The position numbers and the translations under genes are program-made. This document shows, one piece after another, positions 12,607 to 41,786 of a stretch of DNA of 64,000 nt. Every line of letters begins with the position of its first letter. Positions within the stretch are counted from its first letter, which is position 1. The notes beneath the pieces are model-generated. The model searched no databases and was not told where the DNA came from. It saw only the letters and a list, made by a program, of their open reading frames with translations. Location of the stretch: positions 8,680,001 to 8,744,000 of the forward strand of contig NZ_CP086322.1 in NCBI RefSeq assembly GCF_023277745.1. The letters run 5' to 3'. This stretch comes from Streptomyces halobius. Its GTDB lineage: Bacteria; Actinomycetota; Actinomycetes; Streptomycetales; Streptomycetaceae.

Positions 12607-14052
12607 TCACACGGTGCCGCGTCCGGAACCGGAGGCCGAGAGTTTCCCCGGGCCCTGGGCGTGGGCGCGGATCCGTTCCCAGACGTAGTGCACCGTGTCC
12701 GCGTCGGCGTACGGAGATCCGAAGGCGGCCCGTACGGCAGGGCGACCGTTGACGCTCGCGGGGGTACACAGGAGCGTGGGGTCGGTTTGCAGGCGGGAGA
12801 TCAGACCACGGGTGTCCTCGTCGGTGTCGCGACGGAAGACGACCAGGCCCAGTTCGTGCGCCTCCAGGTGAAACCCGGGCTCGGCGGTGACAAGGCGTGC
12901 GAGCTGGGCCGCCAGGCGGACGTCGTGACGGATGGCTTCGCGCAGACCTCGCACGCCATGGGCCCGCATCACGTACCAGAGTTTGAGGGCACGCATCGGG
13001 CGGCCGAGCGGCACCTGCCAGTCGCGGAAGTCCACGACCCGGCCGGAGTCGGTCGCGGGATTCCGCAGGTATGAGGGGGTGATGCTCATGGCGTCGGTGA
13101 GCGCGGTGCGGTCGGCGGTCCACAGGACATCGCACGGGGTGCCCGTACGCATCCACTTGTGGGCGTTGACGGCGTAGGAGTCGGCGAGGGCGATGCCGTC
13201 ATTGAGGTGCCGGTATTCAGGGCACAGTGCCGCGGAGCCCGCGTAGGCGGCGTCCACGTGCAGCCACACGTTCTCCTGCCGGCACAGGCGGCCGATGTCC
13301 GGCACGGGGTCGACGGCGCAGGCGTTGGTGGTGCCGACCGTGGCGATGACGATGGCGGGGACGAGGCCGGCCTTGCGGTCGGTGTCGATCCGCGCGCCGA
13401 GCGCCTCGGGATCCATCCGGTCCGTTCCCGGCAGTGTGGCGATGAGCTGTGGTTCACCCAGGCCGGCGAGCCGGGAGCTCTTGGGAACGCAGGAGTGGGC
13501 GTGCTCCGTGCAGTACATCCGGTAGCGGCCCTCGGTTCCGGCCGAACGCCATCGCCCCAGCGACGCCCGTTGAAGGGCCGCGGCAATGGCGACGAGTACC
13601 GCCGAGGAAGCGGAGTCCTGAATGACTCCGCCGCCGCGGCCACTCGAATGGCGGAAGGCTTCCGGCAGGCCGAGGGCCTGGGCCAGCCAGTCCGTGACCA
13701 GCTGCTCCAGCTCCGTGGCCGCCGGCGATGTCGACCACATCATGCCCTGTACGCCCAGCCCCGCCGTGACGAACTCCGCGAGCACGGACGCCGGGGAGTT
13801 GTTGGTCGGGTAGTAGCCCAGGAATGCCGGATGCTGCCAATGGGTCAAGCCGGGGACGATGACGTTCCAGGTGTCGGCCAGCATCTCCCCGAGGCCCTCC
13901 GCCTGCTCGGGAGGCGCGGACGGCAGCGCGGTGCGCAGGAAGCCGGGTTCACACGGCGGGGTCACCGGTACCTCTCGGGCTGCCAACGCCCGCCAGTGCG
14001 CGACGAGTTGTTTGGTGGCTGTTTCTATCGCCGCTGCAAACTCATCGCCCAT
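12607..14052 (-). CDS. PLP-dependent group II amino-acid decarboxylase (AADC-like)
   Basis: A 481-residue fold-type I PLP enzyme of normal family length. Landmarks: GLTHWQHPAFLGYYPTNNSP (residues about 68-87), ATVGTTNACAVDP, HVDAAYAGSA with Asp267 contacting the pyridine nitrogen, and NAHKWM with Lys299 as the internal aldimine lysine. The HWQHP block and the alignment pattern point to aromatic-L-amino-acid (tryptophan/tyrosine/DOPA) decarboxylases, giving tryptamine-type amines and CO2. Exact specificity is inference. It is divergent from a rightward set holding an orphan enzyme, an acyltransferase, an ACP and a ketosynthase, suggesting it supplies the amine to that pathway. Confidence 0.9.
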   Translation of the reverse strand: MGDEFAAAIETATKQLVAHWRALAAREVPVTPPCEPGFLRTALPSAPPEQAEGLGEMLADTWNVIVPGLTHWQHPAFLGYYPTNNSPASVLAEFVTAGLGVQGMMWSTSPAATELEQLVTDWLAQALGLPEAFRHSSGRGGGVIQDSASSAVLVAIAAALQRASLGRWRSAGTEGRYRMYCTEHAHSCVPKSSRLAGLGEPQLIATLPGTDRMDPEALGARIDTDRKAGLVPAIVIATVGTTNACAVDPVPDIGRLCRQENVWLHVDAAYAGSAALCPEYRHLNDGIALADSYAVNAHKWMRTGTPCDVLWTADRTALTDAMSITPSYLRNPATDSGRVVDFRDWQVPLGRPMRALKLWYVMRAHGVRGLREAIRHDVRLAAQLARLVTAEPGFHLEAHELGLVVFRRDTDEDTRGLISRLQTDPTLLCTPASVNGRPAVRAAFGSPYADADTVHYVWERIRAHAQGPGKLSASGSGRGTV

Positions 14053-14098
14053 AACGTAAAAATAGCGGTCTTATTATAGTTTGTCTACTGTGTCGCTT

Positions 14099-14932
14099 AT
14101 GCGTCCATGTCGTGTCGAACTCCGGCTCCCCGGCCCGGAGCAGCTGCCCGAGAGGGTGGAGTCGCTGTGGTGTTCATCCGTTCGAGAGGACCGCCCGGTT
14201 CGCTTTCTCCCGTGCCCGATGTCCGACCCACGGGAAGCGGACTACGACGCCTTTTTCGGTGTCATCCGGGTCTCCGGCGTATCGGCCGCCCTGCTGGTTT
14301 CCGAGGCGCTGACCACCACGGTGAGTGCGATGGCCTCGCTGCCCGAAGCCGCCGCGGAACCCACGCTCCATGAGGCTCTGGACGCGGCCCGCCTGGCTCC
14401 CGTCGCGGCACCAGGGCTGACACCGGACGCGCCCGCCCAGCAACGATGGATGCACGGGCACCGCCTGTTCTTCGCGCTCACCCAAGCGGCCATCGTGGGC
14501 TTGCAGGACGCGCTGGCCGCACCGAGCGCTCGTTCCTGCGGGCCGGGAGCGCAAGCCACCCACGTCTTCCTGCGCGCGAGCGCTGCCGCCATGCGCTTGA
14601 CCGCGTCCTTCCCCCCGTCCGACTATCAGCGCACCGTGCGGCCTTCCATGACGCCGCCCCAGCATCCCGCCACCGGCTTCTCCGGCCTCTGGTCGGCCGA
14701 TCACCGCGTTCTCATAACCCGATTGCGCGCCTGGGGTGCCATGCACCGTGCTATATGCGCGGATTCCTGTATGATCCGCCGGCGCATATTCGACGCCGTG
14801 GACGAGGTGTACGGCGCTCACATCGGTGTATGTGAACGCTTCGTGGGGGACGGCCCCTCGCTTTTAGGGGGCTCGGAGAACTCCATGGCCACTCTCGGTG
14901 AACTCGCCAGGCGTCGCCGTGGGCTTCTTTAG
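14099..14932 (+). CDS. orphan biosynthetic protein, possibly IDO/PrnB-like heme enzyme
   Basis: A 277-residue protein from the ATG at 14099 (in-frame GTG at 14090 and TTG at 14081 are alternatives). There is no good ribosome site, and a TATTAT-like -10 at about 14072 makes leaderless translation from 14090 possible. There is no signal peptide or membrane segment. The C-terminal part has FLRASAAAMRLTASF, TVRPSMTPP, GFSGLWSADHRVL, GAMHRAICADS and 'VYGAHIGVCERFVG' followed by 'PSLLGGSENSMATL'. The order of an Arg/His-rich helix, a late GG-S loop and a final helix recalls the indoleamine dioxygenase/PrnB superfamily of heme proteins. I recognise this by pattern only, so the family call is tentative. 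It would fit a tryptophan- or tryptamine-processing locus. Confidence 0.55.
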   Translation: MRPCRVELRLPGPEQLPERVESLWCSSVREDRPVRFLPCPMSDPREADYDAFFGVIRVSGVSAALLVSEALTTTVSAMASLPEAAAEPTLHEALDAARLAPVAAPGLTPDAPAQQRWMHGHRLFFALTQAAIVGLQDALAAPSARSCGPGAQATHVFLRASAAAMRLTASFPPSDYQRTVRPSMTPPQHPATGFSGLWSADHRVLITRLRAWGAMHRAICADSCMIRRRIFDAVDEVYGAHIGVCERFVGDGPSLLGGSENSMATLGELARRRRGLL

Positions 14933-15145
14933 GCGGCTCTTGACTTTGTGCCGGGTGTCGCTGAACGCCGGGTGCGGCAGATGTCGGGCTGCTGACACAC
15001 CACGTTCGGCCCAATTCCCCGTGAATGCCATCTTATCTGACGGAACATCGCCTTGAGCCTCGCCCTCATGTCTCCTCGTCACCGCCGACGGCGCGGACAC
15101 AGCGGCCGGGCGACCTTGAAGGAACTCTTTCAGGAAGGGATCGAC

Positions 15146-16462
15146 ATGGGTCTCCGAGATGCCCTTCGTCAGGCCACTGCTGGACGAGACCCGGTTCCCC
15201 CAGCACGACGGCAGGACGGCGCAAGGGCATGGAAGGGAGCCTTTTTCGATTACGCTGCGGCACATCCGGGCACGTCGGTGGCGGTGGGAGGCGTCAGCCG
15301 CATCACGGGTGACGTGCCCTCCCACGAGGAAATGTGTCTCCTGGTGGACCTCGCGGTAGCCCGCTATCCGGAGCTCGCGGAATCGCCACCCGGTGGGCCC
15401 GGCAGCGGGGCGGGTGCCCCGTTCGCCGCCGAAGACCATGTGTTTCGTACATCTGTCGCTGCCGGAACCGGGCTGGACGGGCTGCGGGCCGCGCTGGGGG
15501 ACCTGGCCACCGCACCCCTGCCGGAACGTCTCTGGGGCGTCTGGATTCTGCACGGCTACGCCCCCGATGAGTTCGCGGTCGTACTGCGGGGTCACCACGC
15601 GCACTTCGACGGCATGCTGCTCAGCGAAATCGTGCGCGGCACCCTCGGTGGGCCCGCCGCCTCCCACGCGGACGGCCCACCACTGCCGGGGCGGGTGGCC
15701 CGCCGAGGCACAGCGGCGGAACTGGCGACCGCCGTCCGCGAAGGCATCAGCGCCGCCGACGGGCTGCGCCGGGCCGCTCGTCTCGTACCGCGGAGCTTTC
15801 CCCTGACGGGCGAACTGCACTATGCGTGGGGCAGTGTGGAACTGTCCCGACTCCGGAAGATCGCCGCCGCGTACGGAGTAACCCCCAACGATCTGTACTT
15901 GTCGACCCTCGCCGGCGCTCTCCGGACGTGGGCCGGGGAACATGGCCGGCCGCTCGGCCGGCAACCGATGCGCATGATGGTGCCGGTCACCCTGCGGCGC
16001 CGGGAGGACGCGGGCAAGAGAGGGAACGCGGTGCTGGGCTCGGCAGTGCGGCTGCCGGCCGATCTGGACGATCCGGTTGACCGACTGGCGTACGTGAAGA
16101 CCCGTACGGAGAAGGCCCGTTCATCGCTGTTCAATGCCCACGCCGGCGCCCTGGAGCGCCTGGTCCCCGAGCGGTTCGGCCGGTGGCTCCTCGAACTCGA
16201 TCTGCACCCGCGGAGCACGACGGTACTGGCCTCCTACGTTCCGGGACCGGGGCAGCGTCTCCGCCTCGGCGACCGGGTGGTCACCGAAGCCGTACCACTG
16301 ATCCTCCTGCCGGCCGGCCATGCGCTCGCGGCCTGTTTGTCCAGCTACGCAGCCACCGCGCACATCTGCTTCGTCGCTGACCGGGCGGTCGGGAGCTGCG
16401 ACGGCCTGGTGCGGCTGTGGATGCGTGAGCTGGACGAGGTGACGGCGCGCGCCGGGCTGTGA
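15146..16462 (+). CDS. WS/DGAT-type acyltransferase
   Basis: A 438-residue member of the wax-ester synthase/diacylglycerol acyltransferase branch of the condensation-domain superfamily. The catalytic HHxxxDG motif reads HHAHFDG. The C-terminal DUF1298-like half shows TPNDLYLSTLAGALRTW, RMMVPVTLR, GNAVLGSAVRLP and the 'ASYVPGP' core. These enzymes move an acyl group from acyl-CoA or acyl-ACP to an alcohol or amine. The ATG at 15146 is chosen for its GGAAGGG ribosome site 7-8 nt upstream. A dedicated ACP and ketosynthase follow, so an acyl-ACP donor and the product of the divergent decarboxylase as acceptor are plausible (inference). Confidence 0.8.
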   Translation: MGLRDALRQATAGRDPVPPARRQDGARAWKGAFFDYAAAHPGTSVAVGGVSRITGDVPSHEEMCLLVDLAVARYPELAESPPGGPGSGAGAPFAAEDHVFRTSVAAGTGLDGLRAALGDLATAPLPERLWGVWILHGYAPDEFAVVLRGHHAHFDGMLLSEIVRGTLGGPAASHADGPPLPGRVARRGTAAELATAVREGISAADGLRRAARLVPRSFPLTGELHYAWGSVELSRLRKIAAAYGVTPNDLYLSTLAGALRTWAGEHGRPLGRQPMRMMVPVTLRRREDAGKRGNAVLGSAVRLPADLDDPVDRLAYVKTRTEKARSSLFNAHAGALERLVPERFGRWLLELDLHPRSTTVLASYVPGPGQRLRLGDRVVTEAVPLILLPAGHALAACLSSYAATAHICFVADRAVGSCDGLVRLWMRELDEVTARAGL

Positions 16463-16529
16463 TGTGTATGGGCCGCGTCGCGCCGCGAAGACCACCAACC
16501 CCCCACACCCACCTTCCTGAGGAATCCGG

Positions 16530-16823
16530 ATGACCAACAACACATACGAATGGATTGCCGGCCTGCTCACCGAGCACTTGGGCGTGCCGGAAGACATCAT
16601 CCAACCCGACGCCACCTTCACGGACCTGGATCTCGACTCGCTCTCGATTGCCGAACTCAGCGTGATCATCGAGGACCGGCTCGGCGTTCATCTGACGGAG
16701 GAGGACCTCAAGCCGACCCTCGGAGAGTTCTGCCAGGTCGTCGACGAGAGGCGCGACGACGGGAAGGCCGCGGGCGCGGACACCGCCCAGCAGGACGCGT
16801 CGACCACCCCTACCAGCCCATGA
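16530..16823 (+). CDS. acyl carrier protein
   Basis: A 97-residue protein with a four-helix ACP core. Ser37 in TDLDLDSLSIAELS is the phosphopantetheine attachment site, followed by 'VIIEDRLGVHLTEEDL' as helix 3. The tail after residue 75 is Ala/Thr-rich. A TGAGGAATCCGG leader precedes the ATG. Its stop overlaps the start of the ketosynthase (ATGA at 16820), so the two are translationally coupled and probably act as a pair. Confidence 0.92.
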   Translation: MTNNTYEWIAGLLTEHLGVPEDIIQPDATFTDLDLDSLSIAELSVIIEDRLGVHLTEEDLKPTLGEFCQVVDERRDDGKAAGADTAQQDASTTPTSP

Positions 16824-18043
16824 CGGCGGTCGACGTCGCGGTCACCGGACTGGGATTGGTGACCCCGGCCGGGGTCGGCGTCCACGCCACGTGGGACGGA
16901 CTGCTCTCCGGCCGGTCGCTGGCGGCCACGGACGAGCAGCTGGCCGGCCTCCCGGTGGACTTCTCCTGCCGGGTGCCCGATTTCGACCCCGTGGCCCGCC
17001 TCGGGCGCCGGCTGAGCTGGCGTATCGACAGGTTCATCCAGATGGGGCTGGTCGCCGCCCGCGAAGCGGTCACCGACGCCGGATGGGACCCCGCCGCCTG
17101 GGACGGGGCCCGCGTCGCCGTGGTCCTCGGCAACGGAAACGGCGGCAACGACCACGCTCCCCAGGACTACGGCCTGCTCAACAGCGGTCGGCACAAGGCG
17201 GTCTCTCCCTTGTGCATCACGCGTGCGGTGTCCAACATGCTCGCCGGCGAGATCAGCGCGGATCTCCAGGCACTGGGCCCCAGCCTGGTCACCTCCACCG
17301 CCTGCGCGTCCGGGGGCACCGCCATCGGCGTCGCCCGCGACCTGCTCGGCTCCGGAGCGTGCGACATCGCGATCACCGGCGGCAGCGAAAGCGTCTGCAG
17401 ACCCATGCCCGCGGTCGGGTTCGGCCAGATGGGAGCCCTGTCCACCAGGGTGCACGACCCGGCCAGTGCGTGTCGGCCGTTCGACGCGGACCGGGACGGG
17501 TTCGTGCTGGGCGAGGGCGCGGGCGTCCTCGTACTGGAACGGCTGGCAGACGCCCGCGCCAGACATACGCCGGTGCGTGCCCTCGTCGCCGGATACGGAG
17601 CCTCCGCCGACGGCTACCACTTCACCTCACCCGACCCGGAGGGCCAAGGCGTGGTACGGGCCATCCGCGCGGCGCTCGCCGATGCCGGCCTGTCGGTGTC
17701 GGACATCGACCACATCAATGCCCACGGGACGTCCACGCAGCAGAACGACCTCTCCGAAGCACGCGCCCTGTGCTCGGTCTTCGGCACACCGCCGCCGGTG
17801 ACGGCGAACAAGAGCGTCCTCGGACACTCGATCGGCGGCGCGGGCGCCATCGAAGCCGCCGTCACCGTGCTGAGCCTGCAACACCAGACCCTTCCGCCCA
17901 CCGCCAACCTCGACCGCCTCGACCCCGACATCGATCTGGACGTCGTCACCAAGGCACCCCGCCCCCATCACCTGCGGGCGGCACTCAGCAGCTCCATCGG
18001 CTTCGGCGGCCAGAACGCGGTCCTGGCCTTCCGCGCGCCGTAA
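16820..18043 (+). CDS. beta-ketoacyl-ACP synthase (KAS II/FabF type)
   Basis: A 407-residue complete condensing enzyme. The catalytic triad is Cys162 (TSTACASGG), His302 (NAHGTST) and His336 (KSVLGHSIGG); the C-terminal glycine loop reads SSSIGFGGQNA. It condenses malonyl-ACP with an acyl primer to extend a chain. The dedicated ACP immediately upstream and the acyltransferase before it suggest a short pathway-specific acyl chain rather than primary fatty acid synthesis. No dedicated ketoreductase, dehydratase or CoA ligase is nearby, so the chain is either left unreduced or finished by housekeeping enzymes (inference). Confidence 0.93.
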   Translation: MTAVDVAVTGLGLVTPAGVGVHATWDGLLSGRSLAATDEQLAGLPVDFSCRVPDFDPVARLGRRLSWRIDRFIQMGLVAAREAVTDAGWDPAAWDGARVAVVLGNGNGGNDHAPQDYGLLNSGRHKAVSPLCITRAVSNMLAGEISADLQALGPSLVTSTACASGGTAIGVARDLLGSGACDIAITGGSESVCRPMPAVGFGQMGALSTRVHDPASACRPFDADRDGFVLGEGAGVLVLERLADARARHTPVRALVAGYGASADGYHFTSPDPEGQGVVRAIRAALADAGLSVSDIDHINAHGTSTQQNDLSEARALCSVFGTPPPVTANKSVLGHSIGGAGAIEAAVTVLSLQHQTLPPTANLDRLDPDIDLDVVTKAPRPHHLRAALSSSIGFGGQNAVLAFRAP

Positions 18044-19027: not shown

Positions 19028-20425
19028 TTAGGTCGGTGTGGGTCTTGGCGGGCGGCGTCTGCCTGATCGTCTGGGCAGGGGGCGGTGGCAGGTGGTGCAG
19101 GTGCCGGTCCAGCAGTTCAGCAGGGTCTGGAGGGCGTCCAGGACCTGGTAGAGCGTGAGGCCGGTGTGCGGGCTTTTGGGGAGAGCCGCTGTTCGGTGAG
19201 GAAGGCGTGGGCGGCGGTGACCAGGGTGACGTGGTGGTGCCAGCCGTTCCAGGAACGTCCCTCGAAGTGGTCCAGGCCCAGGCCGTGCTTGAGTTCCCGG
19301 TAGTCGTGCTCGATGCGCCAGCGGATCTTAGCCAGGCGGACCAGTTCGGCGAGCGGGGTGTCCTCGGGCAGGTTGGACAGCGAGCGGGGTGTCCTCGGGC
19401 AGGTTGGACAGCCAGTAGTCGGTCGGCGCTGCGGCGCCTTCGGGCCACTCGACCAGCAAGGTGACCTCGGGCAGGACACCGTCCCAAGAGCCGTGCCCGG
19501 CGACGGCGGCGGACTGGGTCAGACGACGGACCCGCACTCCGGCCGGCCGGACCCGCAGGGCCAGGAAGCGTGAACGCATTGGTCCGCGTGAGCCTTCACG
19601 CCAGGTAACGTCGGTGAAAGCCTGCCGTCCATGGCTGGTGGCGAGTGCGGCTACTGGGGGCGGCTTGTCGCGGTAGCGGGGCTGCGGTTTGCGGCCGTTG
19701 CCGGACCACGGCGGTGCGGTGGGCACCGCATCGTGCGGGTGGACGGTCACATCCGAGCGGATGGCGACGACGTACTTGATGCCGCGGCCCTCCAGGCCGT
19801 CGCGGAAGTCGGCGTTTTGGCCGTAGCCGGCGTCGGCCACCACCACCGGCGGCGCCAGGCCCCACCCGGCCAGCTCGTCCAGGATGTTCAGGGCCAGGCG
19901 CCACTTCTCCTGGTGCCCGATGTCCTCGGGGATCCCCGTCTTGTGCCGCCGGTCGGCGTCTGCGGCCCACTCTTCGGGCACGAACAGGCGCCACTGCAGC
20001 GGGCACGACGCGGTGTCGGTGACTGCGTGCATGCTCACCGCGACCTGGCAGTTGGCCTGCTTGCCCAGTGCACCGCAGTACTGGTGGGCGACCGCCACCG
20101 ACATCCGGCCGTCCTTGGGGAACGACACGTCATCGACTGCCCAGGCATCCGGGCCGATCAGCGGCACCATCCGCTGCGCGATCCGTAGCCGCACCGGCAC
20201 CGGATCCCAGGTGGACTGGTTCACGAACTGCTGCAGGTTCTGCTCGTTGCCGTCCGGCAGCCGCTCAGCCATCGGCTGGATCGACTTGCGCCGCCCGTCC
20301 AGCATCAATCCCCGCAGATAGCAGTCCCCCTTCGCCCGCTGATCCTTCCGCGGCACCGATGCGAACACATCCGCCACAAACGCTGATAACCCCGCCCGCA
20401 AACCCTGAACCTGCCGCACGTCCAT
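19028..20425 (-). pseudogene. IS701-type transposase, frameshifted
   Basis: Translation from the ATG at 20425 gives a normal N-terminal two thirds of an IS701-family DDE transposase: 'AWAVDDVSFPKDG', GALGKQANCQVAVSMH and VVVADAGYGQNADFRDGL. A 31-bp tandem duplication (19350-19380 and 19381-19411) then breaks the frame at SNLPEDTPLA. The next part (LAKIRWRIEHDYRELKHGLG, containing the catalytic Glu) is in a second frame. A further shift near 19175-19190 puts the end (LTLYQVLDALQTLLNCWTGT, stop at 19028) in a third frame. Confidence 0.88.
19350..19411. repeat. 31-bp perfect tandem duplication inside the IS701 transposase
   Basis: Two identical 31-bp units beginning CGAGCGGGGTGTCC, at 19350-19380 and 19381-19411. 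The unit length is not a multiple of three and so frameshifts the transposase. Lack of divergence suggests a recent replication-slippage event. Confidence 0.92.
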
Positions 20426-20547
20426 CCGACCAACATGCTCCCCCCGAACTTGATCGGGAAGACCTAACGGAGCCCTACTAGGGCCTGTTGCGAAGTGGCT
20501 CTTGAGATCCATCCAGCTGACGGGATTCGTGATGACGAACGCCGCTG

Positions 20548-22694: not shown

Positions 22695-23897
22695 TCAAGT
22701 AGCCTGCGCGACTGGCGGCGCAGAGGTGAACAGCCTCTCGTCACGCAACATGGCCCACAGAACGTCCGCGCGACGGCGAGCAAGGGCAAGCAACGCCTGG
22801 GTATGGAGCAGCCCTTCACCACGCTTCTTGAGGTAGTAATCCCGCGACGGTCCTGGGCGCATCATCGCGGTCTGAGCGGACATGTAGAAGAGCCAGCGAA
22901 GGCGCCGGTTGTACCGTTTGGGCCGGTGGTAGTTGCCGGTCCTGCGGCCGGAGTCGCGGGGCACGGGAGCCAGACCGGCGTGGGAGGCGAGACGGCCGGC
23001 GTCCCGGTAGCCGGACAGGTCACCGACGATCGCTATGAACTCGGCACCCAGGATCGGGCCCATGCCGGGGAGGGACTCGATGATCTCGGCGCGCTCATCG
23101 GTGCGGAAGGTCTCGCGGATTTCCCGGTCGTTGTCCTTGATCCGCTCGTCCAGGGCCAGGAGCTGGTGGGCGAGGTCGCGAACGAGGTTTGCGGACTTCT
23201 TCTCGCCGGGCAGCGCAGTGTGCTGCGAGGCAGCGGCTTCCACGGCCTTGGCCGCGACGTCACTGGCACCTCGGTCCTTGCGGCGCTCCAGCCAGGAGGC
23301 CAGCCGCTTGATACCGATACGCCGCAGGGCGGCCGGGGTCTGGTACTCGGTCAGCAGGATGACGGGTCCCTTGGCCGGGGAATAGTCGAAGGCCCGTTCC
23401 AGGGCCGGGCAGATGCCGACCAGCAGATCTCGCAGCCGGTTGATCAACCGGACTCGGTCAGCGATGAGGTCCCGGCGGTAGGCGGTCGGAAGTTGGAGGG
23501 TGGAAACGAGCTCAGGCGGCGTCTTGATCGGGGTGAAATCCCTGCGCATCCGGGCCTGATCGGCGATGACTAGGGCGTCCTTGGCGTCAGTCTTGCCTTC
23601 ACCCCGGTAGCCGTCAGTGGCGCGGTTGACGGTCCGGCCGGGCACGTAGGCCACCTGCTGGCCGTGGGCGACCAGCAGGGCAAGCAGCAGCGCGGAGGCT
23701 CGGCCAGAGATGTCCACCGCCCACCGCACCTCGTCGGCCGAATCACAGGCCGCAGCGATGAGTTGCAAGATTTCGCTCTCATCGTTAACGACCTTCCGGG
23801 AGAACACCGTCTCACCGTCGGCGTTCACCGCGACCGCCCAGTGGTGTCCCTTGCCCGCGTCGACGCCCACCCATATCCGCTGATCAGAGGTGCTCAA
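22695..23897 (-). CDS. IS110-family transposase, apparently intact
   Basis: About 400 residues. The N-terminal DEDD/RuvC-like domain shows WVGVDAGKGHHWAVAV, 'WAVDISGRASALLLALL' and GEGKTDAKDALVIADQARM. The C-terminal Transposase_20 domain shows ESLPGMGPILGAEFIAIVGD and 'LASHAGLAPVPRDSG', with the catalytic Ser in the following helix. TTG at 23897 with GGAG about 9 nt upstream is the likely start; the frame is open to 23948. IS110 elements have no long inverted repeats, so the ends cannot be set. Members use a structured RNA from the element's non-coding end as a guide (established for IS110/IS621 relatives); the flanks 22549-22694 and 23949-24143 would hold it. Confidence 0.9.
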   Translation of the reverse strand: MSTSDQRIWVGVDAGKGHHWAVAVNADGETVFSRKVVNDESEILQLIAAACDSADEVRWAVDISGRASALLLALLVAHGQQVAYVPGRTVNRATDGYRGEGKTDAKDALVIADQARMRRDFTPIKTPPELVSTLQLPTAYRRDLIADRVRLINRLRDLLVGICPALERAFDYSPAKGPVILLTEYQTPAALRRIGIKRLASWLERRKDRGASDVAAKAVEAAASQHTALPGEKKSANLVRDLAHQLLALDERIKDNDREIRETFRTDERAEIIESLPGMGPILGAEFIAIVGDLSGYRDAGRLASHAGLAPVPRDSGRRTGNYHRPKRYNRRLRWLFYMSAQTAMMRPGPSRDYYLKKRGEGLLHTQALLALARRRADVLWAMLRDERLFTSAPPVAQAT

Positions 23898-24143
23898 CCG
23901 TGTCGCTCCGTTCCACCGTGGCCTGAACCTTCGTAGTCCGAGGAACACTCCGCCGACAGGTCCCTAACCAGCGATGCCCGCAGCTCTCGATCAGCAGTCG
24001 GAGCGTCCCGGAGGGCCGGGCGGCCATTCGCACAGAGCCATCGAGGGCAAACATCCCGTCAGCCACACCCAGTCCTCCCGGACCGCCTCACATTCTTAGG
24101 GCCGCTCTCAATGAAGGCCTCAATCAGAGGGTCCAGGCAGGCG

Positions 24144-32067: not shown

Positions 32068-33405
32068 ATGCTCTTCCTCTACGTTGTGCTGCTGCTGAGC
32101 TGTGCCGTGCTGCTGGTCGCCGGCGTGCTGGAGCAGCGGCGCCACTACGCCGCGCTGGCGCAGATCCCCACGCGGGTGCTGGTCAACGGCATTCGCGGCA
32201 AGAGCTCGATCACCCGGCTGTGCGCGGGGGCGCTGCGCGGCGGTGATCTGGTCACCGTGGCCAAGACCACCGGCACCGCTGCCCGGTTCATCCATCCGGA
32301 CGCCACCGAGGAGCCGGTGTACCGGAAGCTGGGCATCGCGAATGTCGTCGAGCAGATCGGTATCGTCCGGCGGGCGGCGGCATACCGGCCGGACGCTCTG
32401 GTGATCGAGTGCATGGCGGTGATGCCCGCACTTCAGGAGATCAACCAGGAGAAGCTGATCCGCTCCACCATCGGCGTGCTGTGCAACGTCCGTGAGGACC
32501 ACCTCGCCGAAATGGGTCCGACGCTGGACGATGTGGCCCGCTCGCTCTCCCGGTCGATGCCGGTCGGCGGGGTCTGTGTCACCGCCGAGCGGGAGCGGCT
32601 GCACCTCCTCGAGGAGGAGGCGGACAAACGCAGGTGCCGCCTGATCACGGTTGATCCGGAGTCGGTCACCGACGAGGAGCTGCGCGGGTTCAGTTGGTTC
32701 ACCTTCAAGGAGAACGTCGCCATCGCGCTGGCCGTGGCCGAACTGCTCGGTGTGGACCGGGCCACCGCACTGCGCGGTATGTGGGACGCGCCGCCGGACC
32801 CCGGCGTGCTCTCCGTCGAGCGTTACCGCACACCGGACGGCAAACGGCTGCGCTTCGCCAACGTCTTCGCCGCCAACGACCCCGAGTCGACGTTGATGAA
32901 CGTCCGCCAGCTGGCGGAGCTCGGTGCGATCCGCCGCCCGCTGAACGTCGTCATCAACTGTCGCCCGGACCGGGTGGAACGCAACGGGCAGATGGGAGCG
33001 ATCGTCCCCGACCTGGGCCCGGAGACGGTCTTCCTCATCGGGCATCCGACCAAGAGCGCCCGCGACGGCATCCCGCCGGGCTGGTCCGCGGGCCGGGTGG
33101 TGGACCTGGGCGGCGACCGGCGCGACGCACCGGAGCTGACCCGCGCCATCCTCGCCGAACTGGGCCCAGACTCCTCGCTGGTGGCCGTCGGCAACATCCA
33201 CGGCCAGGGCGAACTGTTCCTGGAGAACCTCGGCAAGCTGCCCCCTGACCACACCGACGAACCGCTTCCGATCGCCCACCCGCCCGAGCCGGAACCGTAC
33301 AGCTGGGTGGCGCCGCTGAACGGCCCGATGCCCGGCCCGCATATCCGGAGCCCGGCCTCTGCCCATGCCGACGCCCTGTACCAGCCGACAAGGAACCCGC
33401 TGTGA
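32068..33405 (+). CDS. pgsB: poly-gamma-glutamate synthase subunit PgsB/CapB
   Basis: A 445-residue protein with an N-terminal membrane helix (LFLYVVLLLSCAVLLVAGVL) and a Mur-ligase-like amide-ligase domain. The ATP-binding P-loop is LVNGIRGKSSITRLCAGALR; other landmarks are 'VIECMAVMPALQEINQEKLI', 'GVLCNVREDHLAEMG' and 'NCRPDRVERNGQMG'. PgsB activates and joins glutamate at the gamma-carboxyl at the inner membrane face. The C-terminus carries a Pro-rich extension of about 50 residues not needed by the core. The stop overlaps the GTG start of pgsC (33402). No PgsA/CapA-type export gene follows in this operon. Confidence 0.9.
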   Translation: MLFLYVVLLLSCAVLLVAGVLEQRRHYAALAQIPTRVLVNGIRGKSSITRLCAGALRGGDLVTVAKTTGTAARFIHPDATEEPVYRKLGIANVVEQIGIVRRAAAYRPDALVIECMAVMPALQEINQEKLIRSTIGVLCNVREDHLAEMGPTLDDVARSLSRSMPVGGVCVTAERERLHLLEEEADKRRCRLITVDPESVTDEELRGFSWFTFKENVAIALAVAELLGVDRATALRGMWDAPPDPGVLSVERYRTPDGKRLRFANVFAANDPESTLMNVRQLAELGAIRRPLNVVINCRPDRVERNGQMGAIVPDLGPETVFLIGHPTKSARDGIPPGWSAGRVVDLGGDRRDAPELTRAILAELGPDSSLVAVGNIHGQGELFLENLGKLPPDHTDEPLPIAHPPEPEPYSWVAPLNGPMPGPHIRSPASAHADALYQPTRNPL

Positions 33406-33884
33406 TCCCCGTCAATCTCACCCCGCAGACCATCGCGCTGGGGATCGCCCTCGGACTGGTCTTCTCGCTGGTCTGCTATCTGACCACCAACCTCTCTCCC
33501 GGTGGCATGATCACCCCCGGCTGGCTGGCGCTGACCCTCGTCACCGATGTGGTCCGGGCCGCCATGGTGATCGGCGTCACGGCGCTCACCTTCGTCGCGA
33601 CCAAGGTCCTTGAGCGGCATGTGATCCTCTACGGCAAGCGGCTGTTCGCCGCCGTGGTGCTGTCCGCGGTGCTGCTCCAGACCACGGTGCTGCTCGCGCT
33701 CCAGCACGAATTCCCCCTTCTCTACACCGCCCAGACCCTGGGCTTCATCGTGCCCGGCCTGATCGCCTATCAGCTGGTCCGCCAGCCGTTGGCGGCCACC
33801 GTGATCTCCACCACCGCGGTGACCCTCGGCACGTATGTGGTGCTCGTCGCCGGGTTGCTGCTGGGGGCGCTGCCCATGGGCTGA
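33402..33884 (+). CDS. pgsC: poly-gamma-glutamate synthase membrane subunit PgsC/CapC
   Basis: A 160-residue protein with four to five transmembrane helices: TIALGIALGLVFSLVCYLTT, 'GWLALTLVTDVVRAAMVIGV', 'LFAAVVLSAVLLQTTVLLAL', and two final helices ending GLLLGALPMG. The motif 'NLSPGGMITPGWLAL' is the family signature. PgsC forms the membrane complex with PgsB. The GTG start overlaps the pgsB stop (GTGA), showing translational coupling. Confidence 0.9.
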   Translation: MIPVNLTPQTIALGIALGLVFSLVCYLTTNLSPGGMITPGWLALTLVTDVVRAAMVIGVTALTFVATKVLERHVILYGKRLFAAVVLSAVLLQTTVLLALQHEFPLLYTAQTLGFIVPGLIAYQLVRQPLAATVISTTAVTLGTYVVLVAGLLLGALPMG

Positions 33885-37196: not shown

Positions 37197-38099
37197 TCAG
37201 GCCTCCCGGTCCCGCGGAGCCGCGACGACGGCGCGGAAGGCCGCGTCCAGCGCGGCATCCGGTAGCAGCCGCGCCAGCACGCTGGTGGCCTGTGAGTCGC
37301 GGCCGACGCGGTAGCGGGTTTTCGCCCGGCGCGCGGTGAGGGCGTGGGTGACCGCCTTGGCGAAGTTCTCCGGGCGCGTCGCGCTCGACCGGGCCCGCTG
37401 CTCGTTCCGTTCCAGGAAGCGCAGGAAGGACTCGCGGTACAGGCCGGCTACGTCCTCCGGCGCGCCGCCCAGAGTGTCGTGTCCGACGTCGCGGACCTTG
37501 CCCCAGATCGGAGTCTTGATCGCCCCCGGCTGCACCACCACGACGGCCACGCCGAACGGCCTGAGCTCACGGCGGAGCGCGTCGCTGAGCCCCTCCTTCG
37601 CGAACTGCGACGCCGCGTAGGCGCCGAGGTAGGGGCCGGCGATACGCCCGAGCCCGGAACTCACGTTGACGATCCGGCCCCCGGCCGTTCGGGACAGCGG
37701 CAGGAACGCCCGGGTCACGGCGAAGTGGCCGACGAGGTTGGTCTCCAGCTGGCGGCGCAGCTGTGCGGGCGAGACGCACTCCAGCGGCGCCGAGACGCAG
37801 ATTCCCGCGTTGTTGACCAGCCCCCACAGCCCCGTCCCGGCCGTCTCGTCCGCGACCCGGGCGACCGCGTTCCGGATCGAGTCCTCGCAGGTCACGTCGA
37901 GCTTGAGGGGGCGCAGTCGGTCGGTGGACGACGCGGCGGCCAGCGCATCGGCGTCTTCGGCCCGCCGTACGCCGGCGAAGACCCGGAAGCCCAGCCGGTC
38001 CAGGCGGAGTGCGCATTCCCTGCCCAGGCCGGACGACGCGCCGGTGATGACGACGGACCGGTCCTTCGGGGAGAACTGCCGGGATGGTGCGAACAACAT
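37197..38099 (-). CDS. short-chain dehydrogenase/reductase with altered active site
   Basis: A 300-residue Rossmann protein: nucleotide site VVITGASSGLGRECAL (TGxxxGxG), 'LVNNAGICVSAPLE', the Ser of IVNVSSGLGRIAG, and Tyr in LGAYAASQFAKEGLSDALRR. The fourth residue after this Tyr should be the catalytic Lys (YxxxK) but is Gln. The protein may have lost or changed activity, or use the Lys two residues further on. It is the last gene of the NRPS operon, 8 bp after the PapA-like gene. The role would have been oxidation or reduction of a hydroxyl/keto group on the product. Confidence 0.85.
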   Translation of the reverse strand: MLFAPSRQFSPKDRSVVITGASSGLGRECALRLDRLGFRVFAGVRRAEDADALAAASSTDRLRPLKLDVTCEDSIRNAVARVADETAGTGLWGLVNNAGICVSAPLECVSPAQLRRQLETNLVGHFAVTRAFLPLSRTAGGRIVNVSSGLGRIAGPYLGAYAASQFAKEGLSDALRRELRPFGVAVVVVQPGAIKTPIWGKVRDVGHDTLGGAPEDVAGLYRESFLRFLERNEQRARSSATRPENFAKAVTHALTARRAKTRYRVGRDSQATSVLARLLPDAALDAAFRAVVAAPRDREA

Positions 38100-38106
38100 G
38101 GCTCCT

Positions 38107-39555
38107 TCAGCGGTGCTTGGTGTGCTGAGTGGATGGTGGTCGGCGGGACGCGGGCCGGACGGCGGAGAGGAGGCCGTCCACGCATGCGGTGGCGAGGCGC
38201 TCCGCGCGGGGCCGCGGCACGATGTCCTCGACGTGGGTGAAGTTCCAGTGGAGGTGGCCGTGACTGGTGTTCACCGTGGCGACGAAGCAGCCGGAGACGG
38301 AGATTCCGGCGATGAACTGGGCACCTGTGACCTGCCACTGGCCGACGCTTTCCGGGAAGTCGTAGCGGCCGATGTTGGACAGGCACAGGTTGCCCGGGCC
38401 ACTGGACGCCACGCGCCGCACGAACGGTCCGCTTGTCGCGGGCGTCGCCGGGCCGGCCAGACCCAGCAGGTTGATCATGGCGAAGTGGTCCCCGGCCCGT
38501 CGGCGCCGTGCCAGGTCCCGGCTCACGTCGCGGGCCATGGGCCACAACGGCAGCCCAGGCCGGTACGCGACATACGAAGGGAGCGTCGCCACGTAGGCGC
38601 CCGCCTCGTGCAGGGAGACCGGCGGCAGGAGTTGACCGCGGAAGTCGACAGGCGATCCGATGACGTAGTGCCCCGGTTCGGCGGCGGCTCCGGCGTCGTC
38701 CGCGACGGCGGTGACCATCGCCGCGGCGAGTGCCCCGTGCACAGTCGCGCCTTCCCGCCGGCAGGCGCGGCTCAGCGCGTCGAGTTCCTCGGGGGCGAGC
38801 GACCGGTGCAGCAGCCGGGTGCGGCGCTGCTCGACGGGCACCGCCTGGCTCGGTGCCACCCGCCGTGCGCGGGTCCGCTGCCGGTCGAGCTGGTCACGCA
38901 GCTGTCGCGTGAGGGCGCCAATCGCGCCGGGCAGACCCCGGTGGCGGCGCGGGAACATCGCCTCGGGCGCCGGCAGGGCCCGCCACCCGGCAGGGCCCGG
39001 GGCCGCTGCCACCTCCTCGGCCGCGCCGCCGAGCCGGGCGGCGAGCCGGATCCACTCCTCGAGCAGCGCCAGAGCCGTGGTCCCGTCGGCGATGCTGTGC
39101 GAGAGCGTGAGCAGCAGGTCGTGCACATGCTCGCCGGTGCCGTCCGGTGCGCCCTGGGTGAGCACCACGGCGCGGGCCAGCGGGCCCGCGGCCCCGTCGA
39201 TCGGATCGGGGAGCTCTTGTTCGTCGACCTCCCGCTCCCACCAGGCCGCCGGGTTCGTGTCGGTGCCCGCCGTCAGGCTTCGGCGACGCAGCGGGATCGG
39301 GCTGCCGGGGCACGGCATGAACCAGGGATCGCGGCCTGCGGCGTCCGCAGCGATGGCGACGCGCAGGAGCGGATGGCGATCCTGCAGCGCGTTGAGCGCC
39401 TGGCGCAGCAGCGGCACCGGTAACGGCCCCCGCACCTGCGCCCGGGCGATGACATTGAGCGGCGAGATCCGGTCCGCGATCCAGTACCAGCGCTCCAGTG
39501 GGCTGAGCGGTCGGCAGACCGAGGCCGCCGTCGTCGACGACGTATGGGCCGTCAC
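38107..39555 (-). CDS. PapA-like condensation-superfamily acyltransferase
   Basis: A 482-residue protein of the CAT/condensation fold. The N-terminal half starts 'RPLSPLERWYWIADRISPLN' and carries the catalytic HxxxDG as LLTLSHSIADGTTALALLEE. The second half has 'YVIGSPVDFRGQLLPPVS', 'VATLPSYVAYRP' and 'LCLSNIGRYDFPES', as in PapA5-type and alcohol O-acetyltransferase-like enzymes. It would transfer an acyl group from CoA or a carrier protein onto a hydroxyl or amine of the NRPS product. Its start overlaps the previous gene by 4 nt (ATGA). Confidence 0.78.
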   Translation of the reverse strand: MTAHTSSTTAASVCRPLSPLERWYWIADRISPLNVIARAQVRGPLPVPLLRQALNALQDRHPLLRVAIAADAAGRDPWFMPCPGSPIPLRRRSLTAGTDTNPAAWWEREVDEQELPDPIDGAAGPLARAVVLTQGAPDGTGEHVHDLLLTLSHSIADGTTALALLEEWIRLAARLGGAAEEVAAAPGPAGWRALPAPEAMFPRRHRGLPGAIGALTRQLRDQLDRQRTRARRVAPSQAVPVEQRRTRLLHRSLAPEELDALSRACRREGATVHGALAAAMVTAVADDAGAAAEPGHYVIGSPVDFRGQLLPPVSLHEAGAYVATLPSYVAYRPGLPLWPMARDVSRDLARRRRAGDHFAMINLLGLAGPATPATSGPFVRRVASSGPGNLCLSNIGRYDFPESVGQWQVTGAQFIAGISVSGCFVATVNTSHGHLHWNFTHVEDIVPRPRAERLATACVDGLLSAVRPASRRPPSTQHTKHR

Positions 39556-40208
39556 GACGCGGCCCGGTTGCGCGCACCCTCGCCGACCGCGCGCTGGAAA
39601 CGCTTCGATGGAGCCCGCAGCAGCTCCATCCTGATCTGCCGGCCGAAGTTCCGCGCCAACGTCCCGAGGTCGTACGGGACCTGCGAGGTGCCACGGTGGG
39701 CGGGAGGGTTCGGCAGGAGCTCGGGGAAGAGCGGCCCGCCCATCGGATCACCCTGCGTCGGCCCGTGCTTCCAGAACACCGGCATGGCGTTCGGGCGCGG
39801 GTCGTAGCGCGCGTCGTCACCGGTGAACCGGAAGGCGATGGCCCGGCGGCCCCGGGAAGACGAGGGGTTACCGAAGAGGTAGACCCGGCGCGACCGCATG
39901 GCCTGGCCCGCCACGTGCGCGAGGGGCGAGTCGAACCACAGCTCTCGCATCCGGTCGTTCTTCAGCCAGACGAACATGTCGTGGTAGAGCCCCTGCTTGC
40001 GCCGGGAGATGTAGCGGCCGCTCCACGTCGGCTCGGCGGCGGCTCCGTCGACCGCGCGGCGCACCCGCTCGACCCACTCCTGGTCCAGGACCCCGCGGAC
40101 GCAGACGACGCCGTCCCGGTCCAGCGCCTGGAGCTCCGGCGGAGTGAGGTCCCGCGCGGAGGTCGCGGGCAGGCGGTGGTTCACCGGAGGGATCACGAAT
40201 CGCTCCAA
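39552..40208 (-). CDS. phytanoyl-CoA dioxygenase (PhyH)-like protein lacking the metal-binding core
   Basis: A 218-residue protein with an intact frame. The first 110 residues match the start of PhyH non-heme Fe(II)/2-oxoglutarate dioxygenases ('LDRDGVVCVRGVLDQEWVER', MFVWLKNDRMRELWFDSPLA, 'QAMRSRRVYLF'). The next residues (GNPSSSRGRRAIAFRFTGDD, 'ARYDPRPN', 'GDPMGGPLFPELLP') match the family's C-terminal end. The roughly 100 residues normally between them, including the HxD motif and the distal His, are missing. The protein should not bind iron in the usual way. It overlaps the E2-like gene by 16 bp upstream and the acyltransferase by 4 bp downstream, so it is still cotranscribed. Confidence 0.72.
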   Translation of the reverse strand: MERFVIPPVNHRLPATSARDLTPPELQALDRDGVVCVRGVLDQEWVERVRRAVDGAAAEPTWSGRYISRRKQGLYHDMFVWLKNDRMRELWFDSPLAHVAGQAMRSRRVYLFGNPSSSRGRRAIAFRFTGDDARYDPRPNAMPVFWKHGPTQGDPMGGPLFPELLPNPPAHRGTSQVPYDLGTLARNFGRQIRMELLRAPSKRFQRAVGEGARNRAAS

Positions 40209-40546
40209 ACTTCAAGGATGCGGCAGGTCTTGTCGAGGACGCGTGCCGCGAGGACTCCGTCGATGGCCGAGTGGTCGGAGGCGAGGACGAGGTTCATCAC
40301 GGGGCGGATGACGATCTGCCCGTCCCGGACCACGGGGGTGTCCACGGTCGCTGCGCTCGTACTGCCCCGTTGGCCGCGTTCGCGGTAGCGCCGCTGGGCC
40401 TGTATGACCCGGCTCATGTCGACCGGGGCCAGGGCGAACAGCGGCGCCACTTTCCTGGCCGGCTGCAAGAAGTAGTAGATGTGGCTGCGTTCCTTGGGGA
40501 AGCCGCGCCGGGGTGTCGCAGGGCGTGCCGGTCGGGGATCGCTCAT
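40193..40546 (-). CDS. short E2/CAT-type acyltransferase domain with internal deletion
   Basis: A 117-residue protein. The start (SHIYYFLQPARKVAPLFALA, 'VDMSRVIQAQRRYRERG') and the end (PVVRDGQIVIRPVMNLVLAS, DHSAIDGVLAARVL with the HxxxDG motif) match the two ends of the 2-oxo-acid dehydrogenase E2 catalytic domain, which is normally about 230 residues. Around 110-140 residues between GQR and GSTSAATVD appear to be missing. Free-standing E2-like domains of this kind occur in secondary-metabolite loci. The ATG at 40546 starts the conserved part; the longer open frame upstream overlaps no recognisable domain. Confidence 0.6.
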   Translation of the reverse strand: MSDPRPARPATPRRGFPKERSHIYYFLQPARKVAPLFALAPVDMSRVIQAQRRYRERGQRGSTSAATVDTPVVRDGQIVIRPVMNLVLASDHSAIDGVLAARVLDKTCRILEVWSDS

Positions 40547-40617
40547 CACTGTGGTTCCGGTCGGGTGCCTGGGGGTGCCGCGCCGTGGGCCCGGTCCTCG
40601 GGCCCACGGCGCGGCGC

Positions 40618-41784
40618 TCACGGGGCGACGGTGGGAAAGGTCAGCAGGGACGCGTTCTGGCGGTACAGCACGGGCGCCGGTACCCACCGGAGGTACGCGT
40701 CGCGCAGCAGGCGTGGCACCGGGCGCTCGTACTGCTCGATCAGGCTGAGCCTGCGGGAGAGGTGGACCATCCGCCGCGCCCTGGCCCGACGCCGGGCCTC
40801 GTAGTCGCGCAGGCCCTGCCGGAGGTCCGCCGCCGAGGCGAGGCTGCGGGCCAGGACGACGGCGTCCTCCACGGCCGTGCCCGCGCCCTGGCCGAGGCTG
40901 GTCAGCATCGGGTGGGCCGCGTCCCCGAGCAGCGTGACCGGGCCTTCCCCCCACCGCTTGAGGAAGGGGCGGTCCTGGGCCGGCACGCTGACGATCGCCT
41001 GCCCGGGCGTGACCCGGATCGCCTCCCGCACCTCGTCCGCCCAGCCCGCGAAGGCCCGGACGATCTCGTCCTTGCCGCCGTGCCACGCGCGTGCGGCCGC
41101 GGGCGGCATATTCCTCGTGCCCCACCAGTACGCCCGGCCGTGGCCGATGTCGATGAGTCCGAAGCGCTGTCCGGGGCCCCAGTAGTGGCGGGCGCAGCCC
41201 TCGGTGAACCGCGGATGGGAGAAAGGGGCCGTCGCCAGCCAGCAGACGTATCCGGGCTCGCGCGGCTCCTCGGGCCCGGCCAGCTGACGGCGCACGGCGG
41301 AGTGGAAGCCGTCGGCGCCGATCAGCACGTCGCCGCGCACCTCGCTGCCGTCCGCGAACCGGACCCGGACGCCGTCCGCCGTGGTCCTGAAGTCCATTGC
41401 CTTCGCGCCCAGTTGAGGGCCCCCGCCGAGGGCTTCGAGAAGCGCCTGCTGGAGGTCGGCACGGTGGATGTTGACGCTCGGCGCCCCGAGCCGGTCACCG
41501 AACTCCTTCAACGGCAGTTTCCTGACCGGGCGTCCGGCGGGATCGAGGATCTGGAGGCTCTCGATGGCCCGTCCGCGCCGCTCAAGGCCGAGGTCGATCC
41601 CCAGCGTGCGCAGGGCGGACAGCGCGTTACTCATGATCGACAACCCGGTGCCGGCCGGGCGGAGCTCGCGGGCACGCTCGTAGACCTCGACGCCGATCCC
41701 GACCCGGCGCAGGGCGACCGCGGCGGTGAGCCCGCCGATCCCCGCGCCGATGACGATCGCCTTGGGTGCCTGGCCCGCCGTCAT
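40618..41784 (-). CDS. FAD-dependent aromatic monooxygenase (UbiH/PHBH family)
   Basis: A 388-residue class A flavoprotein monooxygenase. The FAD-binding GxGxxG is AIVIGAGIGGLTAAVALRRV, the middle contact is 'GDVLIGADGFHSAVRRQL' (DG motif), and the second FAD site is PVTLLGDAAHPMLTSLGQGA (GD motif). It hydroxylates or epoxidises using NAD(P)H and O2. It starts 2 nt after the NRPS stop and is the first tailoring gene of the operon. A role in oxidising the peptide product or a precursor is inference. Confidence 0.88.
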   Translation of the reverse strand: MTAGQAPKAIVIGAGIGGLTAAVALRRVGIGVEVYERARELRPAGTGLSIMSNALSALRTLGIDLGLERRGRAIESLQILDPAGRPVRKLPLKEFGDRLGAPSVNIHRADLQQALLEALGGGPQLGAKAMDFRTTADGVRVRFADGSEVRGDVLIGADGFHSAVRRQLAGPEEPREPGYVCWLATAPFSHPRFTEGCARHYWGPGQRFGLIDIGHGRAYWWGTRNMPPAAARAWHGGKDEIVRAFAGWADEVREAIRVTPGQAIVSVPAQDRPFLKRWGEGPVTLLGDAAHPMLTSLGQGAGTAVEDAVVLARSLASAADLRQGLRDYEARRRARARRMVHLSRRLSLIEQYERPVPRLLRDAYLRWVPAPVLYRQNASLLTFPTVAP

Positions 41785-41786
41785 GC

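What the first reader, a model, noticed from the sequence alone, without database searches (positions are those of the whole stretch)
12607..18043. Compact amine-acylation locus: decarboxylase, orphan enzyme, WS/DGAT acyltransferase, ACP and ketosynthase
A decarboxylase for aromatic amino acids is divergent from a WS/DGAT-type acyltransferase, a dedicated ACP and its coupled ketosynthase. Together they could make a short acyl chain on an ACP and transfer it to tryptamine or tyramine. WS/DGAT enzymes normally make storage lipids from CoA esters, so pairing with a private ACP/KS is unusual. I know of no described pathway with exactly this set.
Basis: partly seen in the sequence, partly recalled or inferred. 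Interest (0 to 1): 0.72.

Follow-up and report, generated by a model that had tools for sequence, protein, structure and literature searches.

The report
Streptomyces locus for fatty-acylated catecholamines
A small Streptomyces gene cluster appears to turn tyrosine into a dopamine-like amine and attach a fatty chain to it, using a heme enzyme that had been passed over as an 'orphan'; the product has not been tested.

The parts
12607..14052 (-). Aromatic L-amino acid decarboxylase (group II PLP, DDC/AADC type); Lys299, His186 and loop Tyr328 keep the amine-forming pattern
   Evidence: Pfam PF00282 8.1e-93; best solved relatives 6eei 9.2e-110 (named tyrosine decarboxylase 1) and DOPA decarboxylase 1js3 6.9e-104; residues
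14053..14098 (.). AT-rich divergent start region between decarboxylase and oxygenase
   Evidence: Aligned in four species with both start codons
14099..14932 (+). Former orphan: SfmD/TyrH-type heme-dependent aromatic oxygenase (probable tyrosine or tyramine hydroxylase); the ORF opens at 14081 and residue numbers in this report count from there
15146..16462 (+). WS/DGAT-like acyltransferase with HHAHFDG motif (ORF opens at 15053)
16465..16490 (.). Scar of the missing MMPL exporter gene
   Evidence: blastn alignment to S. albospinus runs to 16464 and resumes at 16491, 2.3 kb further on in that species
16530..16823 (+). Acyl carrier protein with DSL serine
   Evidence: PF00550 2e-13; 70% identical in two relatives
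16820..18043 (+). FabF-like beta-ketoacyl synthase, start overlaps ACP stop; Cys-His-His motifs visible in the sequence
   Evidence: PF00109/PF02801; NF005589 above cut-off, TIGR03150 below; sequence

Best explanation
A catecholamine-lipid pathway. Step 1 (inferred): the SfmD-type heme enzyme hydroxylates the ring of tyrosine (or tyramine) to the catechol. Step 2 (inferred): the decarboxylase makes dopamine. Step 3 (inferred): the KS with its ACP makes or extends a fatty acyl chain, probably together with the housekeeping fatty acid enzymes. Step 4 (inferred): the WS/DGAT-like enzyme moves this chain from the ACP (or CoA) to the amine, giving N-acyl-dopamine. Step 5 (relatives only, inferred): an MMPL transporter exports the lipid; the window strain lacks that gene. 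Shown: enzyme families, presence of catalytic residues, conserved co-location. Not shown: substrates, products, acyl donor.
For: Oxygenase: profile and fold to SfmD and TyrH, catalytic columns; LmbB2 of the TyrH group makes DOPA from tyrosine (PMC3851162, abstract and passages). Decarboxylase: DDC/AADC type, window clade His+Tyr, head-to-head with the oxygenase in 17 of 21 named loci and, own genome included, in 7 of 8 assessable strong hits of the genus sample (9 strong hits, one cut by a contig end). WS/DGAT: motif and fold; one clade with the WS/DGATs of the other loci plus one outsider. Lipid theme among the 8 named WS/DGAT-bearing loci: MMPL in 7, KS in 4 with ACP beside it, paired FA_desaturase_2 genes in 2 (Pfam run on one of the two, the other by clustering). 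dN/dS well under 1.
Against: Five of the 8 named WS/DGAT-bearing loci have decarboxylases with aldehyde-synthase residues (Asn+Phe), so an amine is not the common acceptor of this acyltransferase clade. WS/DGATs are O-acyltransferases by name and nothing here tests N-acylation. ACP+KS are missing in 4 of 8 loci and the KSs of the two gene orders are 57% identical, about as close as a paralogue elsewhere in the own genome (54% to the window KS, 58-59% to the others). One WS/DGAT of the clade (L003) has neither oxygenase nor decarboxylase in the 19.9 kb fetched around it. The exporter is lost in the window. The decarboxylase of S. fulvorobeus (L059) is split over two frames.
Confidence: 0.45

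Rival explanations
1. The WS/DGAT makes an ester, not an amide: the acceptor is a catechol alcohol (hydroxytyrosol-like, from the aldehyde) or a free phenol, which is O-acylated.
For: WS/DGAT chemistry is O-acylation by name (TIGR02946 title); 5 of the 8 named WS/DGAT-bearing loci, and the Embleya record L126, have decarboxylases with Asn+Phe, the pattern of aldehyde-forming enzymes (PMC6494836 and PMC6411801 passages).
Against: The window enzyme and its three closest relatives have His+Tyr, the amine-forming pattern. No aldehyde reductase stood out among the cluster genes that I ran through Pfam, but not all flanking genes were run.
Confidence: 0.2
2. The oxygenase acts on tryptophan, and the locus makes an acylated serotonin.
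For: Bacterial heme tryptophan hydroxylases exist, and DDC-type enzymes also accept 5-hydroxytryptophan (PMC13285481 and PMC6411801 passages).
Against: PMC13285481 places those hydroxylases in a sub-family of tryptophan 2,3-dioxygenases; the window profile matches SfmD and TyrH, both tyrosine-type, and lists no TDO or IDO chain up to E=10.
Confidence: 0.07
3. Two unrelated neighbours: a catecholamine pair (decarboxylase + oxygenase) and a separate lipid operon (WS/DGAT, MMPL, ACP, KS) that only happen to adjoin.
For: The pair occurs without WS/DGAT in 9 of the 17 named loci that have it (four of these nine are contigs under 9 kb, where it could be cut off), in some with ATP-grasp or AMP-binding genes instead.
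Against: Two different gene orders (WS/DGAT after the oxygenase; WS/DGAT after the decarboxylase) keep WS/DGAT within 1.9 kb of the oxygenase in 8 loci, and these WS/DGATs group together.
Confidence: 0.15
4. Decaying or silent remnant: loss of the exporter and nearby insertion sequences mark a dying cluster.
For: MMPL deletion; no near-identical MMPL elsewhere in the genome (matches of 31-47% over long stretches and 60% over one 163-residue piece, against 87-88% between species at this locus); transposases downstream.
Against: Five intact frames, dN/dS in the range of relatives.
Confidence: 0.1

Closest known systems
SfmD (3-methyl-L-tyrosine peroxygenase, saframycin) and TyrH/LmbB2 (lincomycin, anthramycin)
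   Same: Sequence profile, fold, histidines and, for SfmD, the HxxxC cysteine
   Different: Those serve other antibiotic pathways (PMC11791213 passages); here the gene is divergent from a decarboxylase and, in 8 of 21 named loci, near a WS/DGAT
Animal DOPA decarboxylase, plant aromatic decarboxylases and insect DHPAA synthase
   Same: Group II PLP family by sequence; the same switch residues vary
   Different: Bacterial; window clade has the amine pattern, other clades Asn with Tyr or Asn with Phe
WS/DGAT O-acyltransferases (Marinobacter 6chj, Acinetobacter AbWSD1 7nxg)
   Same: Fold over nearly the whole model, HHxxxDG in the window protein
   Different: Below the TIGR02946 cut-off (156 vs 310 bits); sits in a biosynthetic locus with its own ACP
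N-acyl amino acid synthases such as FeeM with acyl-ACP (PMC12479983 passages; FeeM seen as a title in a reference list)
   Same: Amino acid + acyl-ACP giving an amide lipid (by analogy)
   Different: A WS/DGAT-type acyltransferase here, and the amino acid would be decarboxylated and hydroxylated first

Membership tests
Heme-dependent aromatic oxygenases, SfmD/TyrH group | Sequence relation to SfmD/TyrH | tested here: met
   SfmD 2.8e-45 over profile positions 4-287 of 294, TyrH 6.5e-15, 8r2s 3e-13
Heme-dependent aromatic oxygenases, SfmD/TyrH group | Helical HDAO fold | tested here: met
Heme-dependent aromatic oxygenases, SfmD/TyrH group | Axial His, distal His, second His and thioether Cys of SfmD | tested here: met
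   His127/208 32 of 32, His247/Cys251 31 of 32, one row truncated. Correspondence to SfmD His274/His313/Cys317 and TyrH His88/His196 is my hand count on the alignment (a 2-residue numbering offset assumed for TyrH); the roles of these residues are recalled, the SfmD paper is not held
Heme-dependent aromatic oxygenases, SfmD/TyrH group | Heme binding and ring hydroxylation | not testable with these tools
   needs protein
Aromatic L-amino acid decarboxylase (amine-forming) | PLP lysine, His192 and loop Tyr equivalents | tested here: met
   K299, H186, Y328
Aromatic L-amino acid decarboxylase (amine-forming) | Substrate and product | not testable with these tools
   needs assay
WS/DGAT family | Pfam WS_DGAT domains over curated cut-off, and HHxxxDG | tested here: met
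WS/DGAT family | NCBIfam TIGR02946 subfamily cut-off | tested here: not met
   156.3 vs 309.95 bits: a divergent relative, not a member of that subfamily
FabF-type ketosynthase | Curated FabF models | tested here: inconclusive
   NF005589 subfamily met (416 vs 387), TIGR03150 equivalog not met (424 vs 494)
N-acyl amino acid synthase (FeeM type) | Membership in that synthase family | not tested
   no such comparison was run; the acyltransferase matched WS/DGAT

The most novel reading that the evidence does not exclude
A previously undescribed actinobacterial module, heme tyrosine hydroxylase + DDC-type enzyme, makes free catecholamine or catechol-aldehyde units that are capped by swappable partners: WS/DGAT (lipids), ATP-grasp or AMP-binding enzymes (other amides). 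The DDC-type enzyme has switched between aldehyde-forming and amine-forming within the family, with insect-type Asn and plant-type Phe changes combined in one bacterial clade; the window belongs to the amine-forming, acyl-dopamine branch.
Probability: 0.35. Interest if true: 0.75.

Novelty: new variant of a known kind. Interest (0 to 1): 0.6.

Why it matters
It would be a bacterial route from tyrosine to dopamine lipids, compounds known to me from animals (recall; one title on rat tissues in a reference list), and would give a WS/DGAT enzyme a role in a specialised pathway. The natural His/Asn and Tyr/Phe variation in one bacterial decarboxylase family offers a direct test of how PLP enzymes choose amine or aldehyde.

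Tried and rejected
Tryptamine as the amine: no support once the oxygenase was placed with SfmD/TyrH. Short-chain product: nothing in the locus speaks to chain length; MMPL and desaturase genes in relatives point to lipids (inference). Paralogues in the own genome: decarboxylase best 33% over part; MMPL matches 31-47% over long stretches, 60% over one 163-residue piece; one FA_desaturase_2 gene, at 6.40 Mb. Close relatives of the window oxygenase (E<=1e-30) were found in 4 of 199 'relatives' genomes, the own one included, none other of the window type (45-47%). WS/DGAT by tblastn in plasmids: 25 records, one with 80% or more of the query, the Embleya record. The viral scan with the decarboxylase alone, which finds close relatives only, gave none. 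TyrH is not among the 50 rows shown by VIA-align, though it is in Foldseek's list; this excludes nothing. A first WS/DGAT tree used wrongly oriented minus-strand loci and was replaced; P0004 and the KS rows are in a wrong frame and were replaced. On the best tree the nine locus WS/DGATs alone are not one clade (L003 falls inside), but one clade is not rejected (p-AU 0.119). In the neighbourhood counts I set identity floors (decarboxylase 50, WS/DGAT 33, MMPL and ACP 25, KS 50%), which drops for instance a 26% WS/DGAT in L068 and 31-33% KS pieces in L054 and L067.

Literature. Listings only, and capped: searches (5 of 6 listed; 15 of 49; 1 of 1, a marine review; none; 8 of 9; 8 of 8; 12 of 12; 15 of 430; 15 of 33,147), 90 (10 of 25). 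None of the listed titles describes this pathway; subscription papers are mostly not held, and no BGC reference collection was available, so absence from print is not shown.

Full report
The locus and its setting. The window is 71% G+C and lies at 8.68-8.74 Mb of a 9.24-Mb single contig; the closest named relatives are Streptomyces. All five reported genes are there and open. The decarboxylase is PF00282, the acyltransferase carries WS_DGAT_cat and WS_DGAT_C, the small protein is a PP-binding ACP with a DSL serine, and the last gene is a FabF-like ketosynthase whose start codon overlaps the ACP stop.

What travels together. One scan of genome contigs with A1 gave 21 named loci. In 17 of 21 a decarboxylase of 56-88% identity lies head-to-head with the oxygenase, 29-255 bases between the matched stretches; of the other four, one contig is cut at that side (L062), one has a different decarboxylase-family gene downstream (L070), and two have none (L067, L071; L071 lies beside an AMP-binding/PP-binding/reductase gene). 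In one of the 17, S. fulvorobeus L059, the decarboxylase is split over two frames. A WS/DGAT of 34-85% identity is within 1.9 kb of the oxygenase in 8 of 21, an MMPL gene in 7 of those 8, a KS of at least 57% identity in 4 of 8; next to these four KSs stands an ACP, found by tblastn in two, by Pfam in L056 and by clustering with it in L059. In S. chattanoogensis and S. albospinus the order is DEC< OXY> WS/DGAT> MMPL> ACP> KS>; in S. natalensis ACP and KS are not found in the 20.8 kb fetched; in Streptomyces sp. CB00455 and S. fulvorobeus the order is desaturase> ACP> KS> desaturase> WS/DGAT< DEC< OXY> MMPL> (Pfam run on CB00455). In a sample of 392 genus genomes, 60 match A1 at E<=1e-5 and 9, own included, score above 300 bits; of these nine, seven (own included) have the decarboxylase next to the oxygenase, one is cut by a contig end, one has none. 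In 396 phylum genomes three match, own included, all of the same genus. So the oxygenase-decarboxylase pair is the core, and the acylation genes are one of several additions: five named loci carry an ATP-grasp-family gene with a second, 30-35% identical decarboxylase (Pfam run on L068, the rest by clustering), and a Kitasatospora locus carries two AMP-binding genes.

The window lacks the exporter. The window aligns to S. albospinus up to 16464, at the WS/DGAT stop, and resumes at 16491, just before the ACP, 2.3 kb further on in the relative. The MMPL genes of this locus are 87-88% identical between three species; elsewhere in the own genome the matches are 31-47% over long stretches and 60% over one 163-residue piece. 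The remaining genes show dN/dS 0.20-0.47, and 0.63-0.66 for the ACP; between the two relatives compared the values are 0.21-0.32, and 0.67 for the ACP.

The decarboxylase. The closest solved structures are plant and animal aromatic decarboxylases. All keep the PLP lysine; the window and its three nearest relatives have His at the DDC His192 position and Tyr in the catalytic loop, nine have Asn with Tyr, seven have Asn with Phe (18 of the 20 also). Asn192 marks insect 3,4-dihydroxyphenylacetaldehyde synthase and a loop Phe marks plant acetaldehyde synthases (PMC6494836 and PMC6411801, passages). PMC6494836 adds a 79-80 motif: Tyr-Phe in DDC, Phe-Tyr or mixtures in the insect synthase; the window has Tyr-Tyr at the aligned place and its three nearest relatives Tyr-Phe, a weak mark against a pure DDC pattern in the window. 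The His+Tyr rows form one clade (100/100) on a tree of 18 rows drawn with a midpoint root. The window enzyme is therefore expected to release mainly the amine; most sister enzymes may release the aldehyde. Whether insect and plant rules hold in bacteria is not known.

Results against this reading. ACP and KS occur in only half of the WS/DGAT-bearing named loci; the KSs of the two gene orders are 57% identical, about as close as a paralogue at 0.51 Mb of the own genome is to them (54% and 58-59%). Five of the eight WS/DGAT-bearing named loci have the predicted aldehyde-forming decarboxylase, which leaves ester formation open. L003 has neither partner gene in the 19.9 kb fetched around it.

Verdict. 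No listed title describes such a pathway; several of these lists were capped, the library lacks most subscription papers, and no BGC collection could be searched. All substrate and product claims are inference.

Noticed in passing
L068:7402-8301 (similar genes in L057, L060, L065, L066, L069): One to three small genes (about 70-95 aa) beside the decarboxylase; those read in L068 have signal-peptide-like starts and two cysteines. No Pfam hit for the three of L068 and one weak NCBIfam hit under its cut-off.
   Followed up: partly
L055, L060, L062, L068, L069: ATP-grasp-family gene plus a second, 30-35% identical group II decarboxylase next to the oxygenase: possibly another way to cap the catecholamine.
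   Followed up: partly
L051:617-8470: In S. chattanoogensis the decarboxylase adjoins a class II DAHP synthase, two MaoC genes, an aminotransferase class IV gene, a chorismate-binding/amidotransferase gene, an AMP-binding gene, a phosphopantetheinyl transferase and an ACP.
   Followed up: partly
L127 (Agrobacterium tumefaciens plasmid pAtAF1_95): A distant relative of the oxygenase, annotated siderophore biosynthesis protein, sits in an NRPS-PKS cluster.
   Followed up: no
window 37197-49001: NRPS with two condensation, adenylation and carrier domains and a thioesterase, next to PapA-like, weak PhyH-like, SDR and FAD-binding genes.
   Followed up: no
window 32068-33884: A weak Mur-ligase-like gene next to a CapC gene, as in poly-glutamate capsule pairs (recalled).
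   Followed up: no
window 19328-20512 and 22695-23948: DDE_5 and IS110-type transposases downstream of the locus, in a stretch where few frames scored as coding.
   Followed up: no
L036-L043, L045, L046, L049, L050: Another recurrent pairing in Streptomyces: a WS/DGAT-like gene with a KS match (31-35%) about 2-5 kb away; several of these WS/DGATs lack the first active-site His.
   Followed up: no
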